From Ischnura elegans (taxonomy: Eukaryota; Arthropoda; Insecta; Odonata; Coenagrionidae), in the NCBI RefSeq assembly GCF_921293095.1, contig NC_060248.1, positions 12,666,744 through 12,730,743 of the forward strand: 64,000 nucleotides of DNA, given 5' to 3'. This document shows positions 15,383-60,325 of the stretch, in pieces. The position numbers and the translations under genes were made by a program. The notes under the pieces are model-generated. The model saw only the letters and a list, made by a program, of their open reading frames with translations, was not told the DNA's origin and ran no database searches. Position 1 is the stretch's first letter. Every line of letters begins with the position of its first letter.

Positions 15383-15923
15383 TTTACGGATAAAAATAGC
15401 AAAAGAAAGCATTTTGGAAAAGAAGCTTGTGAAGGTGTTTCTACAATAACTTTCAATTTCCAAAAATATCTGCGAATAATTACCTCCTTCCGGTCAGCCA
15501 TTCAATGCATTTCCCGTGGGGAATCAGTAATTCACGTATTTTCACCGGACCAGAGGTTTTACACTCCACTGCTGATGCAAAAAATGTTTTTGAAGCTATG
15601 AGAAATTTACGAACTACGAGAAATAATTCCAGCTCTAGTTAATATAAATTAATCGAGAAAGCACTCTTATTTATCTTAGCAGCCCACCATTTGAAGCTAT
15701 GGCCACTTAAAGAATGTATTTACACCCCTAAGCTAACATGGTGCTTAGGCCTAACACAAGATAATGTGAATAACTCTATTATTTGAAACCTGATAGTGAG
15801 ATGTATTATTATTGCGAATATATATTAATACATATATTAATCCTGCAAATATTTGCATTTTTAGAAGATTTTTTTATCAGATGACGTGAAAAATATACTT
15901 CGTCAACCGTCGTAATATGGTAT
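15383..15923. other. No recognisable feature; left flank of palindrome
   Basis: AT-rich and unique in this window. It shows no homology to the right flank after 27,261, and there is no target-site duplication at the palindrome borders. Confidence 0.5.
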
Positions 15924-16012
15924 ACGTGAGTAGTGTAGATATGCCGATTCCACCCAGTTATCACTCTCCAGATCTCTTCTCACGCTCCACATGCATCCGG
16001 TCCCAGCGCTTC

Positions 16013-16026
16013 GAGTTTATCAACTC
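16013..16026. promoter_or_regulatory. Small palindrome upstream of the TATA box
   Basis: GAGTTTATCAACTC sits about 90 bp upstream of the TATA box, flanked by a looser CGCTTCGAG / CTCGAGCG pairing. It is a possible binding site only. A copy exists in the right arm at 27,159-27,172. Confidence 0.25.
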
Positions 16027-16110
16027 AAGACTCGAGCGTGGGAATGACTCTGACGTGATCCGTGGGAGCGTAACCAGTTCAAGTCAGTTATGCTTGTCCC
16101 CCTCTGAGGA

Positions 16111-16146
16111 TATAAAAACGCGACTCGATCGGAGCAGACTCATTCT
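16111..16146 (+). promoter_or_regulatory. TATA box plus initiator (left arm)
   Basis: TATAAAAA begins at 16,111. An initiator-like TCATT has its A at 16,142, so the TATA starts at -31, the canonical spacing for insect RNA polymerase II promoters. The downstream exon lacks any ATG and ends in a good splice donor, as expected for a 5' leader. Confidence 0.6.
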
Positions 16147-16344
16147 CTTCCTTCAAGCAGTCAGCATAGACATCTTCACCTAAAGAAGTCAGTAAAATTA
16201 GGAGGACTGCCCTTAGAGCCAGCACAGCAATCTTCACTTAAAGAAGACGGTAAAAAATTCGAGAACCTTCCTCAGGACCAGCATAGCTATCGTCGATATA
16301 AGAAGTCGTCAGAAATCAGGAGGACCAACTCAGACAGTGATTTG
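16142..16344 (+). other. Predicted ATG-free 5' leader exon (left arm)
   Basis: From the initiator to a G/GTGAGT donor at 16,344/16,345 there are 203 bases with no ATG. Most of it is made of three diverged units of about 58 bp, each with CAGCAYAG, then CTTCAC.TAAAGAAG-like and AGGAGGAC-like segments. It reads toward the palindrome centre. If spliced across the spacer it could join the coiled-coil exon that starts at 21,616 on the same strand, but no transcript evidence is available. Alternatively it is the leader of a lost gene. Confidence 0.45.
16162..16336 (+). repeat. Three 58-bp tandem units in the leader exon
   Basis: Units start at 16,162, 16,220 and 16,279, each opening with CAGCA. They are diverged, so the duplication is older than the palindrome. 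The same array is mirrored at 26,849-27,023. Confidence 0.65.
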
Positions 16345-16499
16345 GTGAGTGTCAGCCTGATTCCATATTATTTTGGTTATATTTATAATAAGTCCACAGA
16401 AATGAAAGGTCATTAAATCCGATAATACTGATCAGAGAGCCTAAAAAATCCTTACGAGTGACTTTCACACAACTAGCATTCATCCGTAATATTTTTCTC

Positions 16500-17830
16500 G
16501 TAAAAACCCTTTTCAGGGTATTTAAGGGTATTTTGGGTACGGAAAAATCCTGGTCCTAGTGCTCTCATTTTCGCCCAAAAATTCGGGGGCATAAATATAG
16601 AAACAATTCCGTTGAAAAAATTTTGACAAAGCAAGTAGTTTAGATTTGGTGGGCTAATTTATGAGTGATGGTATTAGGAGAATATAGGTTAGCAGCAGGT
16701 AGCTTTGCAAGAAAATCTTTAATAACTCCGTTATTTGAAGGAATTTGGGTATAGTTTAAAGGAAAGAGTTACTTTGTTTTTCAATGCACATAAGATGCAG
16801 CAATCAAATTCTCTATGACCCTTAAGGGTTCTCATTCAGGGTAATCAAGTACCCTTATTTTCCGTATTAGGGTTTTAAGAGTTATTAGAAAACTTGTTCA
16901 TCTTTCAACTCTATACACGAAGCACCGATTGATTTTTCATAGTTACCCCCCAAAGTGTCCAAAAATCGGTTTCAAGTTAAGAGAGGACTTGGAAAATTTC
17001 TCTCTTCTTGGGGACAATATAAATCTGTTAATATCTTTCTTATTTGAAGTGATAAATGCAAAGTGTAAACGGTGTAGGTGATAAGAATTAACTACCCTTC
17101 AAATATAACAATCAAATTCTCTACGACCCTTAAGGGTTCCGATTCAGGGTACTCAAGTACCCTTATTTTCCATGTTAGGGTTTTAAGAGTTATTAGAAAA
17201 CTTGTTCATCTTGCAACTCTATACACGAAGCACCGCTTGATTTTTTCATAATTACCCCCCAAAGTGTCCAAAAATCGGTTTCAAGTTAAGAGAGGACTTA
17301 GAAAATTTCTCTCTTCTTGGGGACAATATAAATCTGTTAATATCTTTCTTATTTGAAGTGATAAATGCAAAGTGTAAACGGTGTAGGTGATAATATTTAA
17401 CTACCCTTCGAATATAAAACTCAAAATTTCTCAGACCCTCATGTGGTCAGGGTCAGGGGTGTCTTGCTCCCTTATTAAAGGAGCTAACCTTTCGATGTTT
17501 CTGACAAATATTGTTGCTCCTGCAACGTTATACATGAATTAATAATTTGTTTTTTCAAATTCGCTCCGAAAGCCCTTCAAAAATTAACATAAAAATTATA
17601 TTTGGACTTAAAAATTTCTCGTCCGGTGAAGCATATTTAACCTTTCATATCTTCTTTAGTTAAAGTCATAAAAATATGATACAAATAGAAATTTAGGTTA
17701 ATTTTAATTACCTTTATAAATTATTATCTAAACTTTATGAAACCCTGTATGATTCAGGGTCAGGATACTTAGGTACCTCTAATTAGATTGTTACACTATT
17801 GATATTTATTACAGGAAACAAGCTAAATTG
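16500..17830 (+). repeat. About 308-bp tandem repeat array (left arm)
   Basis: Equivalent points lie at 16,801, 17,109, about 17,419 and about 17,727, giving a 308-309 bp period. Units 1 and 2 are nearly identical; units 3 and 4, and a partial unit before 16,800, are diverged. Each contains an ACCC..AAGGGT / CAGGGTA.TCAAGTACCC block with short inverted symmetry. It lies in the presumed intron after the leader exon. Confidence 0.8.
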
Positions 17831-17989
17831 ATAGCTAAATACAATCCTATAACTGAAAAAATGTTTTAATTCCCGTGCAGAAATATGCATTGACTTGCTT
17901 TTGCATGATTCGATTAATTTTGATTCCACCGTCTAAACGAGCTAGTTGTTCCCGGTATACCTAAGGTCACCCCCATCATTCTAATACAA

Positions 17990-18180
17990 CTTCTAATATA
18001 TTTAAGGGTTATTGTTCTGCGTAAATAAATTTACAAATAAATAAATACATTTTTCATTCCACTTGTTATTTTTTTATAATATATATTAATAATATATTTA
18101 AGGGTTATTGTTCTGCGTAAATAAATTTAGAAATAAATAAATACATTTTTCATTCCATTTGTTATTTTTTATTAATTTAC
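17990..18180 (+). repeat. 96-bp tandem duplication (left arm)
   Basis: TTTAAGGGTTATTGTTCTGC occurs at 18,001 and again at 18,097. The two units are almost identical. Mirrored at 25,005-25,195. Confidence 0.85.
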
Positions 18181-19225
18181 GTACATAAAACTTTTCATCC
18201 CCGTTCAAATTTTAAATACATACTCTTCCTTCAATTATCATGCTCACCCGGGGATAGTATATTTTCTCCCCCCATCATAATTAATTAGGGTCAACAAACT
18301 CTCTCCGTATCAGGTACTAATCCTTTCCATCCGATACTTCACCCTCTCCTTCAACTCTTACTTCTTGAGGAAGTGGAACTCCTCCAGTACATCTTGGAAT
18401 CTTCTCCTTAACAAATGGATAGACAAAATATCAGATATTTGATAAATTAGATACATTATCATATATTTCATAACGAAAAAGAAAAGAAACTCTTTCAAAT
18501 GAGCAGGAGGAGCTTGCAGTGTTGGTGAGGGTATGAGGTGGTGGACGTGTAAGAGGTACCGGTCGTGGTAGTGGAGGGGACTTCCAAAACAAAAGGAAGA
18601 GAATAAATTAACATCATATTGAACAATGAGATTTAAGAACTCCGACTCATTCTTCCATTATCTGTATTATTTTTTATTGAAGAAGCAGATCTCATTAATT
18701 ATTTCATTGATTATTATAGCAATAAATTATAGTGATCTTCCTCTCAGCCCATAAAATTCCGTATATTTCACTCATAATCAACTTAAAGTTTAATCTCAAC
18801 GTTTACAACACTCATAAATAACACTTTTCACCCATTTCCGCGAAAAACCGCATGGAAACGGTAGAGTACATTTCTTCTTTATTTTAGGTATTCTAGTAGA
18901 CATTTTTTCCATTTCCTTTCCTTTCTTGGTTCTGCAACTTTTTCTAGTGAGATTTAGGGGTAGGGGGTATCACAGGGGTCATGACTCCGTAACAATCTAT
19001 GCAGTTATGCCTTTAATTGTTGAAATACAAGTGTCCTCCACATTAGATGAGTATTACTTTTTTTAATTAGACGAACCATTACTTCACAATATTGCGTCAA
19101 ACTCGGGTGCTTATACTTATGACGTGGGAAGTCAATGAAGATGATAAATATGCGTTGAAAAGTCGGAAAAAGATATTAAAAAATTGACCCAACCTCAAAA
19201 TAAACCAGAAGCATCTCTAATAACT

Positions 19226-20272
19226 AGAGATACGTGTAAATAGCACTTTCATTTTAATTTTATAGCACTTACAATTATAGTTTATAGCATTATGCAGCCT
19301 TTTTTTTCTTTTTTCACTGTACATTATCAGTAGATGACGACAAAGTGCGGTGAAACACGGTTATTTGAAAAAATGCGGAACAGTTTTAATAATGTGTTGA
19401 AAAAAATTAATTAAGGAATAAGATATATACTAAACTATCTCACCCTCGGTGAACTTCGTACCACCTGATAATCAATGAACGGTTTCAAAACGCCATTTAT
19501 AAATCAAGAACGGTTGTACTGATTTTAATAATTTTTTAATTATTATAGAAATATTAGTAAAAAATGTGCACTCAAGAAAACTGCAAGAATAAGTATTACA
19601 ATGGCTTGTTAGAAAGAGATTTTTATTTATTCTATATACGTTGGGAGACTTAACTTGCCCGTTCTTGGGACAAGCTTACATAACGCTAGACCGATGCTTG
19701 ATTGACGTAACAATCTCGTGAATAGGCCCTAAGGAAGAGCATTAATATATTATAGCTTATGGCGCGCTATAGTTTTAACTCGGTTAGGTAAAGTGCACCG
19801 CGTAAATCTACCCCCATGTGTAAACGTACCTCAGTCTACCTTACACATTCGGGTCTATTCCATTGAGCCAAGCACCTTCTGATATACAAGGCAAAAAACA
19901 AAATGTCATCATCGTATAGATCGCTAACGATCTTTGGTAGCGTTTTTAATAACCGTAGTCAAGGTCACAGCCTGAAAAAAACATTCTCAGGAAGAAAGTA
20001 AAGAAATGCTTCTACATTCCAATTGTCGAACTCGCCGATTTTTGCGCCTTTTAGACGGAAGCGTGCGAAAATGGGCTGGCGGGGGCGGTGGAATAGCTTG
20101 TCCTCGATGGTCTAGTTTAAGTCTCAGTCAATTAGCAGTAAGAGTCGGCAGAGCATTTCAGCAGAGCTCGTGACTAAATTTACGAATTTTAACATCGAAA
20201 AGACAAATTTTGCTGATTAAACATCATAAAAGTCCAGTCATCGCGCCTATGTCGCATTTATTCACGTGCAAC
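19226..20272 (+). mobile_element. hAT-like element (left arm)
   Basis: The start AGAGATACGTGTAAATAGCAC and the end CATTTATTCACGTGCA correspond to the terminal inverted repeats of the 466-bp element at 42,077. Internal blocks are also shared (GTAGATGACGA.AAA.TG, then GTGAAACAC, AGTCCAGTCATCGC, CTATGTCGCATTT). This copy is about 1.05 kb and holds extra sequence. It has no transposase frame. Because it is present in both arms it was there before the palindrome formed. Confidence 0.65.
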
Positions 20273-21164
20273 TTGAGTAGCATTCATGTGTGGTTAAGTG
20301 TACGCTGTGATATTTGACAAATATTAATAACTGACATATATTTCATATTAATAATTTTTATATTAAAATAAAAAGTATATTTCGTACAGTAATTGTAATA
20401 TGTTGCTTTTCCTCCCAAATTTTAGAAGACAGTTTGCCCATCAGACACTTGTGACCCCTCCAGAAAAAAATTCTGGATCCGCCCTTGTGAACTAGTACTA
20501 CTCCAACAATGTCACCAACTCATGAAAAATGAGCAGCAAATTTTTTATTCTCTTGAATCATAGTTACGAGAGAATAGCTGGATGAGGAGGCTATTTTTCG
20601 TATTCTAACATATATTTCTCTTCAGACTACCAATTTATTTTCATAAATGGCAATTTGGGGTCTTAGTGAATGTCCACATTGATAGGCTTGTAAATGATAT
20701 CTACTTATTGTCAACTATAAGAGAAAACTTTATTGCCCAAGCACCCACTGTTTATTTTTCTTGTTTCCAATATAGAAATATGATAGTTTAAATCATATAG
20801 ATAAAGCTAGCAGAGCCTTATTTCAATTATGTGAGGTTCGTGAATAAATTTCCAACAGTTCCACGCCATAATAGTAAAAGAAAATCAAATCTATCATATT
20901 TGAAAAGATCCAAAATATAATGTGTGATATAAGTGAAAGTGCTAAAAAATTCTAAACTAATAAATATTTCCTGTTCAGTGCAATATGTCCATGAGGTTCT
21001 ATCTGCCTATTTTAATATATAGTGACTGGCTGGACCCCCAGGGCAAAGTACTGGTTAGGCCTGTTCTCCCCAAATACCTCAAGATGGGTCTTTTTCTAAC
21101 AGCCACCACAACACCACACCATATTTTTCCTAGAATAACAAAGCCTGAGCGTGAAATAACTCAC

Positions 21165-21569
21165 CATTCGCATCTTTAGGTTTTTCATTTTTAGCTCCAT
21201 GAGATGCATTTCCTTTTGCTGAGCTATCTTCTGCTCGAGTTGCTGTCTCTTAAGTGTCAGGATCTGATTCTGTAGCTCTGCATTCTTCTTTTCAATCCGT
21301 AGGACATCCACCTGTAACTTGTTGTGATGAAGATTAGCCTCCGCACTGTATCGCTCCAACGCAGCTTTTTCCAGAGTCAAGGTTTCCATCCTAGACCTGT
21401 ACTCGTTGTAGTTCTTAAGGTCCGTAATATAGGCTGCTAACTGTGGATCAAGATTTGTTGCTGGTCAGTAAGGGCATTGGCTTGCTGACAACGCCTTCTC
21501 TCTTTCCGAAGCCAATGACTCAGCATATGGACGGAAATGGGTGTTTCTCTCTCTGGCACCTGCAGAATT
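21165..21569 (-). pseudogene. Coiled-coil exon, broken (left-arm copy)
   Basis: Mirror image of 21,616-22,020, coding on the minus strand and reading outward. Its open part is 21,389-21,166, starting METLTLEKAALERY, and is followed by a GTGAGT donor. The same frameshift is present in this copy, so the break came before the palindrome. Confidence 0.6.
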
Positions 21570-21615
21570 TCATTTCATGCATGAAGTTCATTAAAATGGT
21601 GAACAATCCTAATAC
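21570..21615. other. Palindrome spacer (46 bp)
   Basis: The only non-mirrored DNA inside the palindrome, from the base after TGCAGAATT to the base before AATTCTGCA. It contains ATGCAT and gives no sign of a recombination site. A plus-strand frame at 21,443-21,748 runs through it only because both arms are open there. Confidence 0.85.
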
Positions 21616-22020
21616 AATTCTGCAGGTGCCAGAGAGAGAAACACCCATTTCCGTCCATATGCTGAGTCATTGGCTTCGGAAAGAGAGAAGGCGTTGTCAG
21701 CAAGCCAATGCCCTTACTGACCAGCAACAAATCTTGATCCACAGTTAGCAGCCTATATTACGGACCTTAAGAACTACAACGAGTACAGGTCTAGGATGGA
21801 AACCTTGACTCTGGAAAAAGCTGCGTTGGAGCGATACAGTGCGGAGGCTAATCTTCATCACAACAAGTTACAGGTGGATGTCCTACGGATTGAAAAGAAG
21901 AATGCAGAGCTACAGAATCAGATCCTGACACTTAAGAGACAGCAACTCGAGCAGAAGATAGCTCAGCAAAAGGAAATGCATCTCATGGAGCTAAAAATGA
22001 AAAACCTAAAGATGCGAATG
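21616..22020 (+). pseudogene. Coiled-coil exon, broken (right-arm copy)
   Basis: A presumed exon follows an acceptor-like TTCTGCAG at the inner palindrome edge and ends at a GTGAGT donor (22,021). Two frames share the coding: the first covers HWLRKERRRCQQANALTDQQQ and ends at a stop at 21,748. The second begins right after a stop in another frame, reads LDPQLAAYITDLKNYNEY and continues into the helix METLTLEKAALERY ... QNQILTLKRQQLEQKIAQ up to residue 75. The join needs a frameshift near 21,715-21,740, so the exon is probably dead. The Leu/Glu/Lys/Gln-rich heptad pattern predicts a coiled coil, like the C-terminal part of Myb/SANT-like or Zeste-like DNA-binding proteins, but no DNA-binding domain is present here and that resemblance is only an impression. 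Confidence 0.5.
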
Positions 22021-22912
22021 GTGAGTTATTTCACGCTCAGGCTTTGTTATTCTAGGAAAAATATGGTGTGGTGTTGTGGTGGCTGTTAGAAAAAGACCCA
22101 TCTTGAGGTATTTGGGGAGAACAGGCCTAACCAGTACTTTGCCCTGGGGGTCCAGCCAGTCACTATATATTAAAATAGGCAGATAGAACCTCATGGACAT
22201 ATTGCACTGAACAGGAAATATTTATTAGTTTAGAATTTTTTAGCACTTTCACTTATATCACACATTATATTTTGGATCTTTTCAAATATGATAGATTTGA
22301 TTTTCTTTTACTATTATGGCGTGGAACTGTTGGAAATTTATTCACGAACCTCACATAATTGAAATAAGGCTCTGCTAGCTTTATCTATATGATTTAAACT
22401 ATCATATTTCTATATTGGAAACAAGAAAAATAAACAGTGGGTGCTTGGGCAATAAAGTTTTCTCTTATAGTTGACAATAAGTAGATATCATTTACAAGCC
22501 TATCAATGTGGACATTCACTAAGACCCCAAATTGCCATTTATGAAAATAAATTGGTAGTCTGAAGAGAAATATATGTTAGAATACGAAAAATAGCCTCCT
22601 CATCCAGCTATTCTCTCGTAACTATGATTCAAGAGAATAAAAAATTTGCTGCTCATTTTTCATGAGTTGGTGACATTGTTGGAGTAGTACTAGTTCACAA
22701 GGGCGGATCCAGAATTTTTTTCTGGAGGGGTCACAAGTGTCTGATGGGCAAACTGTCTTCTAAAATTTGGGAGGAAAAGCAACATATTACAATTACTGTA
22801 CGAAATATACTTTTTATTTTAATATAAAAATTATTAATATGAAATATATGTCAGTTATTAATATTTGTCAAATATCACAGCGTACACTTAACCACACATG
22901 AATGCTACTCAA

Positions 22913-23959
22913 GTTGCACGTGAATAAATGCGACATAGGCGCGATGACTGGACTTTTATGATGTTTAATCAGCAAAATTTGTCTTTTCGATGTTAAAATT
23001 CGTAAATTTAGTCACGAGCTCTGCTGAAATGCTCTGCCGACTCTTACTGCTAATTGACTGAGACTTAAACTAGACCATCGAGGACAAGCTATTCCACCGC
23101 CCCCGCCAGCCCATTTTCGCACGCTTCCGTCTAAAAGGCGCAAAAATCGGCGAGTTCGACAATTGGAATGTAGAAGCATTTCTTTACTTTCTTCCTGAGA
23201 ATGTTTTTTTCAGGCTGTGACCTTGACTACGGTTATTAAAAACGCTACCAAAGATCGTTAGCGATCTATACGATGATGACATTTTGTTTTTTGCCTTGTA
23301 TATCAGAAGGTGCTTGGCTCAATGGAATAGACCCGAATGTGTAAGGTAGACTGAGGTACGTTTACACATGGGGGTAGATTTACGCGGTGCACTTTACCTA
23401 ACCGAGTTAAAACTATAGCGCGCCATAAGCTATAATATATTAATGCTCTTCCTTAGGGCCTATTCACGAGATTGTTACGTCAATCAAGCATCGGTCTAGC
23501 GTTATGTAAGCTTGTCCCAAGAACGGGCAAGTTAAGTCTCCCAACGTATATAGAATAAATAAAAATCTCTTTCTAACAAGCCATTGTAATACTTATTCTT
23601 GCAGTTTTCTTGAGTGCACATTTTTTACTAATATTTCTATAATAATTAAAAAATTATTAAAATCAGTACAACCGTTCTTGATTTATAAATGGCGTTTTGA
23701 AACCGTTCATTGATTATCAGGTGGTACGAAGTTCACCGAGGGTGAGATAGTTTAGTATATATCTTATTCCTTAATTAATTTTTTTCAACACATTATTAAA
23801 ACTGTTCCGCATTTTTTCAAATAACCGTGTTTCACCGCACTTTGTCGTCATCTACTGATAATGTACAGTGAAAAAAGAAAAAAAAGGCTGCATAATGCTA
23901 TAAACTATAATTGTAAGTGCTATAAAATTAAAATGAAAGTGCTATTTACACGTATCTCT
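22913..23959 (-). mobile_element. hAT-like element (right arm)
   Basis: Mirror copy of 19,226-20,272, in reverse orientation. Confidence 0.65.
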
Positions 23960-25004
23960 AGTTATTAGAGATGCTTCTGGTTTATTTTGAGGTTGGGTCA
24001 ATTTTTTAATATCTTTTTCCGACTTTTCAACGCATATTTATCATCTTCATTGACTTCCCACGTCATAAGTATAAGCACCCGAGTTTGACGCAATATTGTG
24101 AAGTAATGGTTCGTCTAATTAAAAAAAGGATTACTCATCTAATGTGGAGGACACTTGTATTTCAACAATTAAAGGCATAACTGCATAGATTGTTACGGAG
24201 TCATGACCCCTGTGATACCCCCTACCCCTAAATCTCACTAGAAAAAGTTGCAGAACCAAGAAAGGAAAGGAAATGGAAAAAATGTCTACTAGAATACCTA
24301 AAATAAAGAAGAAATGTACTCTACCGTTTCCATGCGGTTTTTCGCGGAAATGGGTGAAAAGTGTTATTTATGAGTGTTGTAAACGTTGAGATTAAACTTT
24401 AAGTTGATTATGAGTGAAATATACGGAATTTTATGGGCTGAGAGGAAGATCACTATAATTTATTGCTATAATAATCAATGAAATAATTAATGAGATCTGC
24501 TTCTTCAATAAAAAATAATACAGATAATGGAAGAATGAGTCGGAGTTCTTAAATCTCATTGTTCAATATGATGTTAATTTATTCTCTTCCTTTTGTTTTG
24601 GAAGTCCCCTCCACTACCACGACCGGTACCTCTTACACGTCCACCACCTCATACCCTCACCAACACTGCAAGCTCCTCCTGCTCATTTGAAAGAGTTTCT
24701 TTTCTTTTTCGTTATGAAATATATGATAATGTATCTAATTTATCAAATATCTGATATTTTGTCTATCCATTTGTTAAGGAGAAGATTCCAAGATGTACTG
24801 GAGGAGTTCCACTTCCTCAAGAAGTAAGAGTTGAAGGAGAGGGTGAAGTATCGGATGGAAAGGATTAGTACCTGATACGGAGAGAGTTTGTTGACCCTAA
24901 TTAATTATGATGGGGGGAGAAAATATACTATCCCCGGGTGAGCATGATAATTGAAGGAAGAGTATGTATTTAAAATTTGAACGGGGATGAAAAGTTTTAT
25001 GTAC

Positions 25005-25195
25005 GTAAATTAATAAAAAATAACAAATGGAATGAAAAATGTATTTATTTATTTCTAAATTTATTTACGCAGAACAATAACCCTTAAATATATTATTAAT
25101 ATATATTATAAAAAAATAACAAGTGGAATGAAAAATGTATTTATTTATTTGTAAATTTATTTACGCAGAACAATAACCCTTAAATATATTAGAAG
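25005..25195 (-). repeat. 96-bp tandem duplication (right arm)
   Basis: Mirror copy of 17,990-18,180. Confidence 0.85.
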
Positions 25196-25354
25196 TTGTA
25201 TTAGAATGATGGGGGTGACCTTAGGTATACCGGGAACAACTAGCTCGTTTAGACGGTGGAATCAAAATTAATCGAATCATGCAAAAGCAAGTCAATGCAT
25301 ATTTCTGCACGGGAATTAAAACATTTTTTCAGTTATAGGATTGTATTTAGCTAT

Positions 25355-26685
25355 CAATTTAGCTTGTTTCCTGTAATAAATATCAATAGTGTAACAATCT
25401 AATTAGAGGTACCTAAGTATCCTGACCCTGAATCATACAGGGTTTCATAAAGTTTAGATAATAATTTATAAAGGTAATTAAAATTAACCTAAATTTCTAT
25501 TTGTATCATATTTTTATGACTTTAACTAAAGAAGATATGAAAGGTTAAATATGCTTCACCGGACGAGAAATTTTTAAGTCCAAATATAATTTTTATGTTA
25601 ATTTTTGAAGGGCTTTCGGAGCGAATTTGAAAAAACAAATTATTAATTCATGTATAACGTTGCAGGAGCAACAATATTTGTCAGAAACATCGAAAGGTTA
25701 GCTCCTTTAATAAGGGAGCAAGACACCCCTGACCCTGACCACATGAGGGTCTGAGAAATTTTGAGTTTTATATTCGAAGGGTAGTTAAATATTATCACCT
25801 ACACCGTTTACACTTTGCATTTATCACTTCAAATAAGAAAGATATTAACAGATTTATATTGTCCCCAAGAAGAGAGAAATTTTCTAAGTCCTCTCTTAAC
25901 TTGAAACCGATTTTTGGACACTTTGGGGGGTAATTATGAAAAAATCAAGCGGTGTTTCGTGTATAGAGTTGCAAGATGACCAAGTTTTCTAATAACTCTT
26001 AAAACCCTAACATGGAAAATAAGGGTACTTGAGTACCCTGAATCGGAACCCTTAAGGGTCGTAGAGAATTTGATTGTTATATTTGAAGGGTAGTTAATTC
26101 TTATCACCTACAACGTTTACTGTTTGCATGTATCACTTCAAATAAGAAAGATATTAAAAGATTTATATTTTCCCCAAGACGAGAGAAATTTTCCAAGTCC
26201 TCTCTTAACTTGAAACCGATTTTTGGACACTTTGGGGGGTAACTATGAAAAATCAATCGGTGCTTCGTGTATAGAGTTGAAAGATGAACAAGTTTTCTAA
26301 TAACTCTTAAAACCCTAATACGGAAAATAAGGGTACTTGATTACCCTGAATGAGAACCCTTAAGGGTCATAGAGAATTTGATTGCTGCATCTTATGTGCA
26401 TTGAAAAACAAAGTAACTCTTTCCTTTAAACTATACCCAAATTCCTTCAAATAACGGAGTTATTAAAGATTTTCTTGCAAAGCTACCTGCTGCTAACCTA
26501 TATTCTCCTAATACCATCACTCATAAATTAGCCCACCAAATCTAAACTACTTGCTTTGTCAAAATTTTTTCAACGGAATTGTTTCTATATTTATGCCCCC
26601 GAATTTTTGGGCGAAAATGAGAGCACTAGGACCAGGATTTTTCCGTACCCAAAATACCCTTAAATACCCTGAAAAGGGTTTTTAC
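25355..26685 (-). repeat. About 308-bp tandem repeat array (right arm)
   Basis: Mirror copy of 16,500-17,830. Its unit 1 differs from left-arm unit 1 over 26,104-26,182, whereas the rest is almost identical. Confidence 0.8.
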
Positions 26686-26840
26686 GAGAAAAATATTACG
26701 GATGAATGCTAGTTGTGTGAAAGTCACTCGTAAGGATTTTTTAGGCTCTCTGATCAGTATTATCGGATTTAATGACCTTTCATTTCTGTGGACTTATTAT
26801 AAATATAACCAAAATAATATGGAATCAGGCTGACACTCAC

Positions 26841-27043
26841 CAAATCACTGTCTGAGTTGGTCCTCCTGATTTCTGACGACTTCTTATATCGACGATAGCT
26901 ATGCTGGTCCTGAGGAAGGTTCTCGAATTTTTTACCGTCTTCTTTAAGTGAAGATTGCTGTGCTGGCTCTAAGGGCAGTCCTCCTAATTTTACTGACTTC
27001 TTTAGGTGAAGATGTCTATGCTGACTGCTTGAAGGAAGAGAAT
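26841..27043 (-). other. Predicted ATG-free 5' leader exon (right arm)
   Basis: Mirror copy of 16,142-16,344 on the minus strand: initiator at 27,043, three 58-bp units (26,849-27,023), donor just after 26,841. The DNA upstream of this copy is different beyond 27,261, so the two promoters have different distal flanks. Confidence 0.45.
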
Positions 27044-27074
27044 GAGTCTGCTCCGATCGAGTCGCGTTTTTATA
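27039..27074 (-). promoter_or_regulatory. TATA box plus initiator (right arm)
   Basis: Mirror of 16,111-16,146: TATAAAAA on the minus strand starts at 27,074, and the initiator A is at 27,043. Confidence 0.6.
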
Positions 27075-27261
27075 TCCTCAGAGGGGGACAAGCATAACTG
27101 ACTTGAACTGGTTACGCTCCCACGGATCACGTCAGAGTCATTCCCACGCTCGAGTCTTGAGTTGATAAACTCGAAGCGCTGGGACCGGATGCATGTGGAG
27201 CGTGAGAAGAGATCTGGAGAGTGATAACTGGGTGGAATCGGCATATCTACACTACTTACGT

Positions 27262-28365
27262 GATCTCGAGAAGAAAGTGAAGAACTCCAAAGGAAAGAAA
27301 AAAAGTGAATGACTGCCAAATGGAGGGATTTAAAATGGCATTCTTCCCTCAAACTATAAAGGGTAGCAGCGGTGTCTCCATTAATAAATTAATGGCATGA
27401 TTCGCAGGGATGACTCATCCCATGTTTTTATTTTCCATTACTCAAACCTTGCATGGATTTACTATAGGAAGTACTACCAATTGGCAAGTTTTGTCATGAA
27501 TGTGCGCGTATTTATTGTTATTATGAGTAATATTTTTATGACCGCGCGGTGCGCATGTGGGGATCCTATTTTAAGCTTCATGCTGGTGATGGGTGACTCC
27601 CTACCATTTATCCTAGAGGTGGCTTGCAGGTTATTATGTAGATGTAGATCCTGAGCCTTTTTTCTATCAAATACCATCACATTCATCTCCGCTTCTTCCT
27701 TCTGACGAAACGAGCAGCAGGTTATTGGTCGGAAAATGATACTGCTGGAAATAAACTGAAGGAGAGCGAAATACGGAAATGGAGCGGAGAGACAGAGAGG
27801 TTGTTGATGATTGATAGAAAAGAGACCCTTGAAAAAATAGCCACAGGGAAACCCTGACGAGAAAGAAAAGACGCAAAAGTGAGAATCATCATTCTCTTTT
27901 CTCGGAGAGGCGTGAAATAAGGCGTAGGAGAGCATGAAAAGTTGTACGAGGTTGAAATAGGAATGAAGGTCAACCGAACACGATCATGAAGAAAACACTG
28001 TTTTCGATATAAAATGCACATAATAGGTGCTGCTTTCCAATCGTCAGGTCACACCTTCGATTCGGGGATAGTACATGGGAGTCGGTGCAAAAAATGTGGC
28101 GCAATCAACCGCTTTGCCGACCTTTAGACATGGACCCCTGACATGGACCTTTGGTTTCCCGCGCGATTGTTCGGACCACTATGGTACCCAGATACCTGGT
28201 TACCTAATGGCAATCGCTCGGTTTACCCATAGTTGGCCCCTGCGGTTCATCCAAGGTAGCTACGCGAGGCAGAAAGGACTTTCGTTTAGCCACATGCGGT
28301 TGAGAGACTCAAACCTGCGCTGAAGTCGCGCACGGCGGATATGTGCGGCAATTTTACCGAGGCTA
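27262..28365. other. Mostly unassigned; right flank of palindrome
   Basis: No gene recognised. It holds the short repeat at 27,582-27,652 and a GC-richer patch at about 28,040-28,340 with an 82-codon frame (28,075-28,323) without any known motif. The overlapping minus frames at 27,474-28,021 are Ser/Phe-rich translations of a purine-rich strand. Confidence 0.35.
27582..27652 (+). repeat. Short interspersed repeat, partner of 9,530-9,606
   Basis: GCTGGTG, TCCCTACCA, TAGAGGTGGCTTGCAGG and TTATGTAGATGTAG in the same order as the minus-strand copy near 9.6 kb. Confidence 0.5.
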
Positions 28366-53699: not shown

Positions 53700-54623
53700 G
53701 TTATCCTAAAATTAGTTTGAAGCAGCTCTCCATTCCTCTCTCCTATCCGCCAATCTTTTCATAGCTACATATTTCTTCTCTTTTACATCCTTCATAACCT
53801 GTCCTATGTAACTCGTCCGGGGCCGTCCATTGCCCTTCTTACCTTCCACCTGTCCTCCAATGACTAATTTCATCAGGCCATCCTGCATCAAAATGTGGCC
53901 AACTACGTTTTTTTGTCTTCTGCTTAAGGTTTTTAGTAGAGACTTCTCTTTTCTCCCACTCTCCTTAGCACTTCCTCATTACTTACACGGTCGATCAATT
54001 TTATCTTCATCATTCTTCGTTAGCATCACATATCGAATGTTTCCATTCTTGACGTCTCTGCTGCTGTCAACGTCCAAGCCTCGTTTCCATAGAGAAAAAT
54101 GCTATTTCTATAGCATCTGATGAATTGTTTCCTTACTTCTATGCTTGTAGTCTCAGCTGTAAGAAGATTCTTCATTTTGTAGGAAGCTCACTTTGCCTGC
54201 GCTATTCTACTGGCTATTCTTTCTAGCTTCGTCCATCGTTGGTAATTTGGCTTCCATGGTAAGAAAACTCTTTCACCTCTTCGAGCTTATGCTTCCGTAG
54301 GTTAATGTTTGTCTTAGCCTCCTCTCTTTTGCTGCAAAGTAATATCTTAGTCTTCATTTTGTTGATTTTCAGCTGATATCTGGCCATTGTCCTTTCCATA
54401 TTTGTCAAAGTCTACTTCAAATTATTTTCTATCTCGGCTATGACTACAATGTCTTCAGCAAATTGCAGCATACTTATTATTTCTCCGTTGATATTGACAC
54501 CCAAAGCTTACTCCTCGATTTCATTGATGGATTTCTCAATGTGTAGGTACATCAAAAATTACGGGAGACAGTGCACACCCTTATCTCATTCCTTTTCCTA
54601 TTCTTGCTTCTACACAGTTGGGC
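53700..54623 (-). pseudogene. Older LINE-B copy, interrupted
   Basis: A minus-strand LINE-B: the 3' end is at 53,700 (GAAGCAGCTCTCCATTCC is the antisense of the RAAS codons), and the frame 54,408-54,223 gives MARYQLKINKMKTKILLCSKREE and EVKEFSYHGSQITNDGRS. Reading upstream, the motif B region is near 54,560-54,620. At 54,623 it is cut by the younger plus-strand LINE-B, and its continuation (GGGCCCAGCTGTGAAG in the family) is visible after 56,103 as antisense TCCACATTTCATCACAGCTG. Several frameshifts and substitutions. Confidence 0.85.
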
Positions 54624-56061
54624 ATCTAAAGCGTCTGGCATTGATGACATTTCTGCAGAACTAATCAAAAATTCAGGAGAGAAGACATTGAACCAGCTAT
54701 ACAAAATCATTAGTGAAATGTATACGACAGGTGAGATACCAAAGGATTTCGAGAGGAACATTATAATCCCTATTCCTAAGAAGAAACGAGCGGAGAAGTG
54801 CGAAGATTTTAGGACCATAAGCCTTACGACACATGCATCAAAGATACTAACAAGTATCATCTATAGAAGAATAGAACGAAAAGCAGAAGAGTACTTGGAT
54901 GAGGACCAATTTGGATTCAGAAAAAACAAAGGCACAAGGGAAGCAATATTGGCCCTAAGAATGCTCATAGAGAAGAGAATGGAAAAGAACAAGCCAACAA
55001 TCGTTGCGTTTGTGGACTTAGAGAAAGCATTTGATAACGTGGATTGGAGCACAATGCTTGGAATCCTAAAGGAAATTGGGGTTCTTTATAATGACAGAAG
55101 AATCATCCACAGTTTATACAAAAACCAAGTAGCCATGATAAAATCAGGGCCCAGCTGTGAAGAAGCAAGAATTGAGAAAGGAGTGCGACAAGGCTGTACA
55201 TTGTCACCCGTAATTTTCAACGTTTACATTGAAAAAGCCATTAATGAAATCAAAGAAAAGGCATTGGGAGTGAATATCCATGGAGAAAAAATAAGCATGC
55301 TAAGATTTGCCGATGACATAGCCGTTATAGCAGAAACAGAGAAGGATTTGAAAAATATTCTGATTAATATGGTTAGGGTAATGAGTAGATATCAACTGAA
55401 AATAAGCACGAAGAAAACCAAGATCTTAGTATGCAGCAGAAGAGAAGAAGTCAAGGCCAACATTAAAATAGGGAGGCAAAAACTGATAGAAGTGGATGAA
55501 TTCTGTTATTTGGGAAGCAAGATAACTAGTGACGGGAGAAGCAAGAAAGAAATTATCAGCAGAATAGCCCAGGCGAAGAGAGCATTCCACCAAAAGAGAG
55601 ACCTGCTTACAGCGGGAAACTTAAATATGGATGTAAAGAAACAATTTATAAGAACCTACATCTGGAGTATGCTCCTATACGGAAGTGAGGCATGGACAAT
55701 GACCGCAGCGGAGAAAGCAAGGATAGAGGCCTTTGAAATGTGGTGCTACAGAAGAATGATGAAAATCAAATGGATCGACCGAGTTAGTAACGAGGAAGTC
55801 CTAAGAAGGGTAGGAGAGAAGAGAAGCCTCATGAAAACCTTAATAAGAAGACGGAACAACCTTATAGGCCACATCTTGAGACATGATGGCCTGTTGAAGA
55901 CAATCGTCGAAGGGCAAGTGGAAGGCAAGAATGGAAAAGGAAGAACTCGAACAAACTATATGGAACAAGTAAAGAGAGATGTGAAAGAGAAGAAATACGT
56001 AGGAGTGAAAAGATTAGCTGATAGGAGAACTGAGTGGAGAGCTGCGTCAAACCAATCCTAG
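54571..56061 (+). CDS. LINE-B reverse transcriptase fragment, intact frame
   Basis: A 496-codon frame. The first 17-18 residues (MHTLISFLFLFLLLHSW) are antisense flank from the older LINE-B; the element's own frame starts at 54,624 and runs 479 codons to TAG at 56,059. It begins inside the RT domain: SGIDDISAELIKN, PIPKKK, FRTISL, QFGFRKNKGTREAI, motif A VDLEKAFDNVDW (Asp at residue 149), motif B GVRQGCTLSPVIFN, motif C RFADDIAVI (Asp-Asp 248-249). After it come YLGSKITSDG, LLYGSEAWTM, AFEMWCYRRM and a basic tail with GHILRHDG. It encodes the polymerase of target-primed retrotransposition, but endonuclease and the RT N-terminus are missing, so it cannot move by itself. No in-frame stop means the insertion is recent. 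Its promoter, if any, is unknown. Confidence 0.85.
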   Translation: MHTLISFLFLFLLLHSWASKASGIDDISAELIKNSGEKTLNQLYKIISEMYTTGEIPKDFERNIIIPIPKKKRAEKCEDFRTISLTTHASKILTSIIYRRIERKAEEYLDEDQFGFRKNKGTREAILALRMLIEKRMEKNKPTIVAFVDLEKAFDNVDWSTMLGILKEIGVLYNDRRIIHSLYKNQVAMIKSGPSCEEARIEKGVRQGCTLSPVIFNVYIEKAINEIKEKALGVNIHGEKISMLRFADDIAVIAETEKDLKNILINMVRVMSRYQLKISTKKTKILVCSRREEVKANIKIGRQKLIEVDEFCYLGSKITSDGRSKKEIISRIAQAKRAFHQKRDLLTAGNLNMDVKKQFIRTYIWSMLLYGSEAWTMTAAEKARIEAFEMWCYRRMMKIKWIDRVSNEEVLRRVGEKRSLMKTLIRRRNNLIGHILRHDGLLKTIVEGQVEGKNGKGRTRTNYMEQVKRDVKEKKYVGVKRLADRRTEWRAASNQS

Positions 56062-59411: not shown

Positions 59412-60325
59412 GCTTCCGCGGTTAGTTGATTGGTGATGGTTTTCCGGGTTTACACCGCGTTGGTACATGTTTTGCGGACGACAGTTTCGGGCGCGTTCCA
59501 GCTCCCGTCTTCGGGTCCAAATGATTTGCAGATCTGTGATCCTTATTTATTTACAGCTAGTCAGACGGATGTTGATTTTTAATTCCATTGTTGGAAAAGC
59601 CGTTTGAAAGATGAGGATAAAGGATAGCCGTCTTCCCTATTGAAGTTCTTTGGGTGACTCGCTATTTCAATCGCCTCCCTTATCAGCCTAGGGAAATATT
59701 TATTTTCCCTGGCGATGATTTTCGATTCCTTGAAAAGTATGACGTGCCCAGGTTCCGACCATGCATGCTCTGCAACCGCAGAAAGACGAAAATTTTTCTT
59801 TTCGGTTGCCTTAAGATGTTCATTTATTCTGCATTTGAGGGATCTAGATGTTTGCCCGATGTATGATAAACCACAGGAACACGTTACTTCATACACTACT
59901 TCATAGATATCTGATGGATGACGATCTTTTTCACTCCGGAGGAGGTCAGAGGTCTTCTTCAAACTTATAAATCGCGTCAGAACGTCATGTTTGGCGAGAA
60001 CTCTAGTAATTCTTTCCGACGTTCCAGCCACGTATGGCAAGAGAGCATGTGCCTTTGCCTTTTGCTGGTCTTCCTTTGCAATGTCCAAGGCCACATCTCT
60101 TTTCTCTTCTTCCCTACGCGCGATTTTTTTAATCAGCACCCGATCGTAGCCATTTTCTTGGAGCGTGGTAAGGAGGTGTTGTTTCTCTCTAGCGAGCGAA
60201 TCTGTATCCGATATGGAATATGCCCTATGATATAGAGTTTTAATAACTGATGCTTTTTGCCTGGGATGATGGTGTTATTTGGCATTCAAATAGCGATCAG
60301 TATGCGTTTCCTTACGATGTGATAA
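59412..60325 (-). pseudogene. Penelope-like element: RT end and GIY-YIG domain
   Basis: The minus-strand frame starts in the last RT part (HRKETHTDRYLNAK, about 60,325-60,278), is broken by one TAA (60,275-60,277), and continues open to 59,579. In the open part from 60,139: a linker rich in Arg/Glu, PYVAGTSERI (residues 35-44), then the GIY-YIG nuclease with VVYEV (81-85), CSCG (87-90), YIGQT (93-97), Arg104 and NEHL. HAWSEPGH and KYFPRLIREAIEI follow. This arrangement, RT followed by GIY-YIG, defines Penelope-like elements, where the nuclease primes insertion. The upstream RT is missing, so the copy is 5'-truncated. The 3' side carries a hammerhead-like motif. LINE-A and direct-repeat pieces lie on either side. 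Confidence 0.9.
59476..59518 (-). ncRNA. Hammerhead-like motif in the Penelope 3' region
   Basis: On the minus strand: stem I GGAC/GTCC at the two ends, CCGAAGA (one base from CUGANGA), one extra C, stem II GGG/CCC with a 12-base loop, GAAAC, T, GTC. It lies about 60 bp after the stop codon of the GIY-YIG frame. Known biology of Penelope elements makes a ribozyme here plausible; this copy has one core change. Confidence 0.55.

What the first reader, a model, noticed from the sequence alone, without database searches (positions are those of the whole stretch)
15924..27261. 11.3-kb near-perfect palindrome with a 46-bp spacer
Two 5,646-bp arms mirror each other with coordinates that always add to 43,185, so there is no net indel between arms, yet there are real mismatches. 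There is no target-site duplication at the borders, and the flanks are unrelated. This is either a large inverted duplication (as from a hairpin-capped break or template switching), a palindromic mobile unit, or an assembly fold-back. Such palindromes in other genomes keep identity by arm-to-arm conversion.
Basis: seen in the sequence. Interest (0 to 1): 0.85.

Follow-up and report, generated by a model that had tools for sequence, protein, structure and literature searches.

The report
Palindromic copy-back derivative of Polinton transposon
The giant palindrome is a mobile element: a gutted, doubled-back version of a virus-like Polinton transposon, and sister copies appear to preserve the spot where a DNA strand folded back and copied itself, as copy-back defective virus genomes do.

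Summary
The palindrome is real: arms 15929-21569 and 21616-27256, 11 mismatches in 5,641 bp, 46-bp spacer. With 5'-AGTAGT termini these are Polinton/Maverick hallmarks. The outer 2,034 bp of each arm match one end of five ~14-17-kb elements of the same genome (97-99%); the one examined for genes encodes an integrase with chromodomain. The palindrome has no ORF above 116 aa; its inner arms hold a core shared with other inverted pairs and a host-like segment. Four copies (window, C2, C8, C12) are palindromic, at unrelated sites with perfect 6-bp TSDs. Arms within a copy are nearly identical, private changes mostly sit in both arms, and outer ends follow different Polinton subfamilies. In C2 the loop follows, with gaps, a linear host locus up to a 13-nt sequence complementary (one mismatch) to an upstream site; exactly there it turns into a copy of its own arm. 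I read this as a fossil of fold-back (copy-back) priming. A second family with Polinton-like ends also has a palindromic member and probably more. The window copy later lost its centre. New variant of a known kind; trans-mobilisation is inferred.

The parts
15923..15928 (.). left copy of 6-bp target-site duplication TACGTG
15929..21569 (+). left arm (5,641 bp)
15929..15938 (+). terminal motif AGTAGTGTAG, (AGT)2 as in Mavericks
   Evidence: motif described in PMC8097293 section 7
15929..17962 (+). outer module = end of ~14-17-kb Polinton-like elements (97.3-99.4% to five of them)
16801..17439 (+). 309-bp tandem repeats (2.1 copies), where outer ends switch between subfamilies and nine of the arm mismatches lie
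17963..20269 (+). palindrome-specific core; about 18091-19499 and 20107-20270 also in other inverted pairs at 86-96%
20270..21562 (+). segment homologous to a linear locus at C3:115.478 Mb (95%), probably captured host DNA
21096..21389 (-). coiled-coil-like ORF (my reading; 97 aa here; its frame is 139 aa or more in sister copies and has one TGA in this copy), left arm
21570..21615 (.). spacer left by an asymmetric deletion of the ancestral centre; 36 bp of it are inner right-arm sequence of sister copies
21616..27256 (-). right arm (mirror of left arm)
21623..22915 (-). mirror of host-like segment
   Evidence: (mirror coordinates)
21796..22089 (+). mirror of coiled-coil-like ORF, same TGA in its frame
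22916..25222 (-). mirror of palindrome-specific core
   Evidence: (mirror coordinates)
25223..27256 (-). mirror of outer Polinton-end module
27257..27262 (.). right copy of target-site duplication TACGTG

Best explanation
A non-autonomous, palindromic mobile element with Polinton/Maverick ends. Shown: 6-bp TSD, AGTAGT termini, an outer 2 kb that is 97-99% the end of larger elements of the same genome (one of which, examined, encodes an integrase), dispersed sister palindromes, arms that share private changes, and in sister copy C2 a turn point at a 13-nt inverted match. Inferred: a strand started at one Polinton end stopped inside captured host DNA, folded its 3' end back on itself, and copied itself out to its own start, giving a molecule with the same end twice (copy-back, as in defective virus genomes). 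Such a molecule has both ends needed for replication and integration in trans by full Polintons. Whenever one strand refolds and is copied, one arm becomes the template of both, which explains why changes and swapped ends sit in both arms. The window copy lost its centre by an asymmetric deletion.
For: TSD and termini: window, C2, C8, C12 perfect, 4 of 5 family-A palindrome-type copies read; larger relatives 4 of 5 directly, the fifth if one extra terminal ACT is allowed. Relative C12:71.0 Mb: rve 5e-13 and Chromo 9e-8, integrases of solved structure 3.7e-9. Arms within a copy: C2 5,894 bp with 1 mismatch and 1 gap, C12 5,917 bp with 1 mismatch, C8 3,788 bp with 1 mismatch and 1 gap, against up to 0.97% between copies in 17963-20018. 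Private changes in 17500-21420: 16 in both arms, 3 arm-specific. Outer 872 bp: window 0.34% from three Polintons but 5.2-5.3% from palindromes C2/C8, which are 2.5-2.6% from another Polinton. Turn point: the lone mismatch in the 13-mer is the host base and the only substitution between the C2 arms; 1 of 2,000 shuffled upstream stretches gave as good a partner (single-base shuffles, 13-mer chosen after seeing it); C8 shares the junction. Other turn points: C12 (6 nt), C9:90.46 of the second family (about 5 nt, 31-nt loop, read by eye).
Against: The window copy's own turn point is gone, so the junction is read from sister copies. The 13-nt partner lies in a 72-bp stretch of C2 that the host locus lacks, and the host has about 690 bp extra; identity there is 81-94%. 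The C12 and C9 turns rest on 5-6 nt, weak on their own. The polymerase of the relative was recognised by motifs I recall, not by any profile; capsid candidates had no hit. Nine of the window's 11 arm mismatches lie in the tandem repeats, outside the stretch counted. C13 has unequal 6-bp flanks and arms 4.7% apart in the outer 872 bp. The arms of C9:90.46 differ by one repeat unit of about 0.35 kb. The host locus might instead be a relic of a linear element. Replication in trans was not observed.
Confidence: 0.72

Rival explanations
1. The palindrome arose in the chromosome: a break or replication fault made an inverted duplication of a Polinton end (microhomology template switch or annealing of short inverted repeats), and the product, having two good ends, was then mobilised. 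Arms stay alike by chromosomal gene conversion.
For: Needs no element-encoded replication; the 13-nt inverted match fits any template switch. Long inverted repeats in another transposon (Galileo) are attributed to recombination and conversion (PMC3573991 passages).
Against: It must recur: turn points differ in C2/C8, C12 and the C9 copy of a second family. Swapped outer ends stand in both arms of copies with intact TSDs.
Confidence: 0.2
2. A Foldback/Galileo-type cut-and-paste transposon family with unusually long inverted repeats, unrelated to Polinton replication.
For: Long arms with internal tandem repeats and size variation resemble Galileo (passages).
Against: TSD is 6 bp, termini AGTAGT, and the outer 2 kb is the end of larger elements, one of them shown to encode an integrase. 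Galileo is bounded by 7-bp sequences.
Confidence: 0.04
3. Assembly or library fold-back artefact.
For: Near-perfect palindromes are a known artefact form; no reads were available to test it.
Against: TSD at the outer borders, different flanks, arm differences, and sister palindromes with other centres and other TSDs at unrelated sites.
Confidence: 0.02

Closest known systems
Polinton/Maverick self-synthesising transposons
   Same: 6-bp TSD, (AGT)2 end motif, inverted terminal repeats, end module shared with larger elements of the same genome, one of them shown to encode an integrase
   Different: No ORF above 116 aa, so no integrase, polymerase or capsid gene; inverted repeats of 5.6-5.9 kb against 46-1,447 bp (mean 402) in intact vertebrate Mavericks (PMC8097293, section 7)
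Copy-back (snap-back) defective viral genomes of negative-strand RNA viruses (their anatomy recalled; papers seen only as listings)
   Same: One end doubled as inverted complement, a turn at a short match, presumed dependence on a helper
   Different: DNA; integrated and dispersed as a family; carries a host-like segment; no interference shown
Symmetric inverted-duplication genomes of adenovirus (recalled; one search listed no source)
   Same: Protein-primed linear DNA with one end doubled into a palindrome
   Different: Those are passage products; this is a family with several chromosomal insertions
Galileo / Foldback elements
   Same: Very long, internally repetitive inverted repeats; non-autonomous members; chimeric copies
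   Different: P-superfamily transposase and 7-bp TSD for Galileo (passages)

Membership tests
Polinton/Maverick | 6-bp target-site duplication | tested here: met
   TACGTG both sides
Polinton/Maverick | 5'-AG / (AGT)2 end motif in inverted terminal repeats | tested here: met
   AGTAGTGTAG at both ends; motif per PMC8097293 section 7
Polinton/Maverick | retrovirus-like integrase | tested here: not met
   Longest ORF overlapping the palindrome is 116 aa; an integrase is present in relative C12:71.0 Mb
Polinton/Maverick | protein-primed DNA polymerase B | tested here: not met
   No large ORF in the palindrome. In the relative a 902-aa ORF shows motifs that I recall; profiles gave only Endonuclease_7 below cut-off
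Polinton/Maverick | ATPase, protease and capsid genes | tested here: inconclusive
   None in the palindrome. In the relative: weak P-loop hits, Peptidase_C5 E=0.032 below cut-off, capsid candidates without hits
Copy-back defective genome | one terminus present at both ends as inverted complement | tested here: met
   Both arms end in the module that relatives carry at one end; the other end of the two relatives compared shares 177 bp
Copy-back defective genome | turn point at a short complementary sequence | tested here: met
   Met in sister copies C2 and C8 (13 nt, 1 mismatch); not readable in the window copy, whose centre is deleted
Copy-back defective genome | replication by, and interference with, a helper | not testable with these tools
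   No expression or DNA-form data
Foldback/Galileo | P-superfamily transposase, 7-bp TSD | tested here: not met
   6-bp TSD; no ORF of transposase size inside

The most novel reading that the evidence does not exclude
Palindromic copy-back derivatives are a recurrent, evolving class of parasites of Polintons: they form anew at different turn points, swap ends between Polinton families, carry captured host DNA, and re-create their symmetry at each round of fold-back replication. They would be a DNA counterpart of copy-back defective genomes fixed in a chromosome, and a record of protein-primed replication errors.
Probability: 0.45. Interest if true: 0.85.

Novelty: new variant of a known kind. 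Interest (0 to 1): 0.7.

Why it matters
To my knowledge Polinton replication is mostly inferred from gene content. A junction where a strand visibly folded back and copied itself, with a linear counterpart still in the genome for comparison, would be direct evidence on how these elements replicate. Doubled end swaps would suggest that the palindrome is renewed outside the chromosome. It also gives a route by which host DNA is captured and spread, and a natural set of long palindromes for studying how host repair erodes their centres.

Tried and rejected
Rejected: assembly artefact; Foldback/Galileo membership (6-bp TSD); a gene-bearing element (no large ORF). No tRNA in the window. The coiled-coil-like ORF had no Pfam match above cut-off, nor had the 88-aa ORF at the left end. 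Polymerase and capsid candidates of the relative had no useful match among solved structures. A scan of viral contigs with the polymerase fragment found no relative. The nine mismatches in the tandem repeats are not simple conversion from the next unit: the left arm has the base of both Polintons compared at 9 of 9, and the right-arm base equals that of the preceding unit at 3 of 9.

Literature: searches showed no title or abstract start on palindromic or copy-back Polintons in the rows I saw (open-licence library only; for example 42 held 44 papers, 30 listed; one held 54, 12 listed; one held 3,622, 12 listed). Seen: passages of PMC4642659, PMC3573991, PMC2836005, PMC6431247, PMC8097293 and section 7 of PMC8097293; others as listings only.
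Full report
Observation. TACGTG stands at 15923-15928 and at 27257-27262; as it is almost its own reverse complement it hid in the arm ends. The element is 15929-27256, starts AGTAGTGTAG at both ends, and has arms of 5,641 bp with 11 mismatches.

Context. The window lies in an unnamed eukaryote genome of 1.72 Gb in 110 contigs, at C3:12.67 Mb. The species is unknown; that it is an animal is my inference from its repeats and a hemopexin domain. The outer 1.5 kb of the arm has 59 match rows there, some of them pieces of one place (40 of 221 candidates scored); the tip pattern has 57 (27 forward, 30 reverse, control 0). By my own pairing of the coordinates there are four palindromes (window 11.3 kb, C2 12.0, C12 12.4, C8 14.0 with a 2.7-kb insertion in one arm), the irregular C13 (11.4 kb) and 17 further pairs of 12.8-19.8 kb; the rest are unpaired or nested tips.

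Relation to Polintons. The outer 2,034 bp of the arm (15929-17962) match one end of five larger elements at 97.3-99.4%; in the two whose other end was compared, that end shares only 177 bp. The element at C12:71.0 Mb, the only one examined for genes and read in two pieces, holds an integrase with chromodomain (Pfam rve 5e-13, Chromo 9e-8; integrases of known structure 3.7e-9), a 902-aa ORF cut by the piece border and apparently continued in the next piece, a 216-aa P-loop ORF, a protease-like ORF (Peptidase_C5 E=0.032, below cut-off) and further ORFs without hits. I take the long ORF for the family-B polymerase from motifs that I recall; no profile confirmed it. The TSD length and the (AGT)2 end motif agree with those described for Mavericks (PMC8097293, passages and section 7). 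In one relative (C5:36.07 Mb) the right end has one extra ACT and the TSD is perfect only when this is allowed; slippage of a terminal triplet is what protein-primed jumping-back could leave, but this is one case.

Palindromes as a family. TSDs are perfect in 4 of 5 family-A palindrome-type copies read: window TACGTG, C2 ATTTCA, C8 TACAAT, C12 TACACT; C13 has ATCCTC against TACCTC. Among 12 flanks compared, the only matches of 150 bp or more were one of 596 bp at 81% between a C12-palindrome flank and a C2-relative flank, and repeats between the two C8 flanks. C13's right arm keeps only the outer 1.5 kb (7% from its left arm there; 4.7% in the outer 872 bp) and that half contains a LINE-type ORF. 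The copy at C12:49.78 Mb has one arm and no second one in the stretch read.

Arms evolve together. Within a copy, arms differ by 1 mismatch and 1 gap in 5,894 bp (C2), 1 mismatch in 5,917 (C12), 1 mismatch and 1 gap in 3,788 (C8, part). Between copies 17963-20018 differs by up to 0.97%. In 17500-21420, substitutions private to one copy and present in both arms number 16; differences between the arms of a copy number 3 (C8 could be scored only in the first of two stretches; the tandem repeats and outer module, with nine of the window's mismatches, were not in this count). The in-frame TGA of the coiled-coil-like frame stands in both arms of the window copy and is absent from the 8 stop-free rows at 96-99% (six other copies). 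A TGA reported for the truncated C8 right arm lies outside the arm, before the point where it resumes.

Ends are modular. In the outer 872 bp the window arms are 0.34% from three Polinton ends and 0.80% from two more, but 5.2-5.3% from palindromes C2 and C8, which are 2.5-2.6% from a Polinton end at C19:107.96 Mb; in 17500-17962 the palindromes are within 0.9% of each other and 1.5-2.8% from Polintons. The switch falls in the 309-bp tandem repeats. So ends seem to have been exchanged with resident Polintons, and each exchange stands in both arms. C12 carries a 26-bp longer tip, also seen (within 3 mismatches, at one end each) in three elements of 12.85 kb.

Turn point. The inner arm from 20270 on is homologous to a linear locus at C3:115.476-115.479 Mb, 4.65-4.74% from the palindromes compared, one of three diverged copies within 0.1 Mb. 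This locus follows the inner arm and the 231-nt loop of C2, with gaps (about 690 bp extra in the host, 72 bp extra in C2; pieces at 81-94%), up to TTAGTTGCACCTA; there C2 leaves it and turns into the complement of its own left arm. The 13-mer is complementary, with one mismatch, to a site just before the loop, and the mismatching base is that of the host. It is the only substitution between the C2 arms. In 2,000 single-base shuffles of the upstream 700 bases one gave as good a partner; the 13-mer was picked after it was seen. C8 has the same junction within a rearranged centre. C12 turns elsewhere, at a 6-nt match with a loop of 128 nt. The simplest reading is a nascent strand that began at a Polinton end, stopped, folded back and copied itself. 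The partner site lies in the 72 bp that the host locus lacks, so the host may have lost it or the element gained it.

Window centre. Here the centre is missing: after the left arm come about ten other bases and then 36 bp of inner right-arm sequence known from C2. This asymmetric loss fits repair of an unstable palindrome; it also means the window copy cannot by itself show its turn point. In 17963-20018 the window is closest to C8 (0.29-0.44%), then to C2 and the C12:49.78 copy (0.39-0.49%).

A second family. Part of the core, 18134-19499, also occurs at 94-95% in three elements with other ends, AGTAGGGTAAAA, and at 86-91% in a third group whose ends were not read. For the second end type TSDs are perfect in 9 of 9 pairs read. 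Its subterminal pattern has 79 matches (control 0). From typed positions 36 elements pair up: 14 of 19.8-22.4 kb, each with exactly one hit of a subterminal hemopexin-domain stretch (Pfam E=1.6e-4), and 22 of 12.8-15.9 kb (one of them 16.7 kb by its outermost tips), of which 7 have it at both ends, 4 once and 11 not listed. One search scored 40 of 179 candidates, so low counts are not absences. One small member, C9:90.46 Mb (15.9 kb), is palindromic in the stretches read: outer parts 99.8-100% apart from one repeat unit of about 0.35 kb that the right arm has extra, and 465 bp at the centre with a 31-nt loop by eye. One (C4:74.7 Mb) has different tips left and right with a perfect TSD: perhaps an end exchange not yet doubled. 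Whether the 20-kb members encode Polinton genes did not complete.

Judgement. That this is a non-autonomous palindrome with Polinton ends is close to certain; that the family arose by copy-back is likely; that symmetry is renewed by replication rather than chromosomal conversion is plausible. It is not a Polinton proper, because the defining genes are absent.

Noticed in passing
window 54571-56061 (+) and 59579-60139 (-): Reverse transcriptase ORF (RVT_1 1.7e-42) and a GIY-YIG ORF (5e-6) in the same window; perhaps Penelope-like, not followed.
   Followed up: no
L022:1173-3866 (-): LINE-type reverse transcriptase ORF of 897 aa in the right half of the irregular C13 copy.
   Followed up: no
C9:21788438-21805165: A second-family element with nested tips about 1.0 kb apart at both ends, symmetrically: perhaps an end duplication that was doubled too.
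   Followed up: no
window 17005-17230 / 25955-26180: Nine of the eleven arm mismatches cluster in the tandem repeats; the right arm is the one that differs from both Polintons compared at all nine.
   Followed up: partly
C3:115.387, 115.441 and 115.478 Mb: Three diverged copies of the host-like coiled-coil locus; more distant matches (30-33%) at 14 other places.
   Followed up: partly
L012 and L023/L024, C8 copy: C8 centre is rearranged: part of the loop is deleted and part inverted, and a 2.7-kb insertion sits in one arm.
   Followed up: partly
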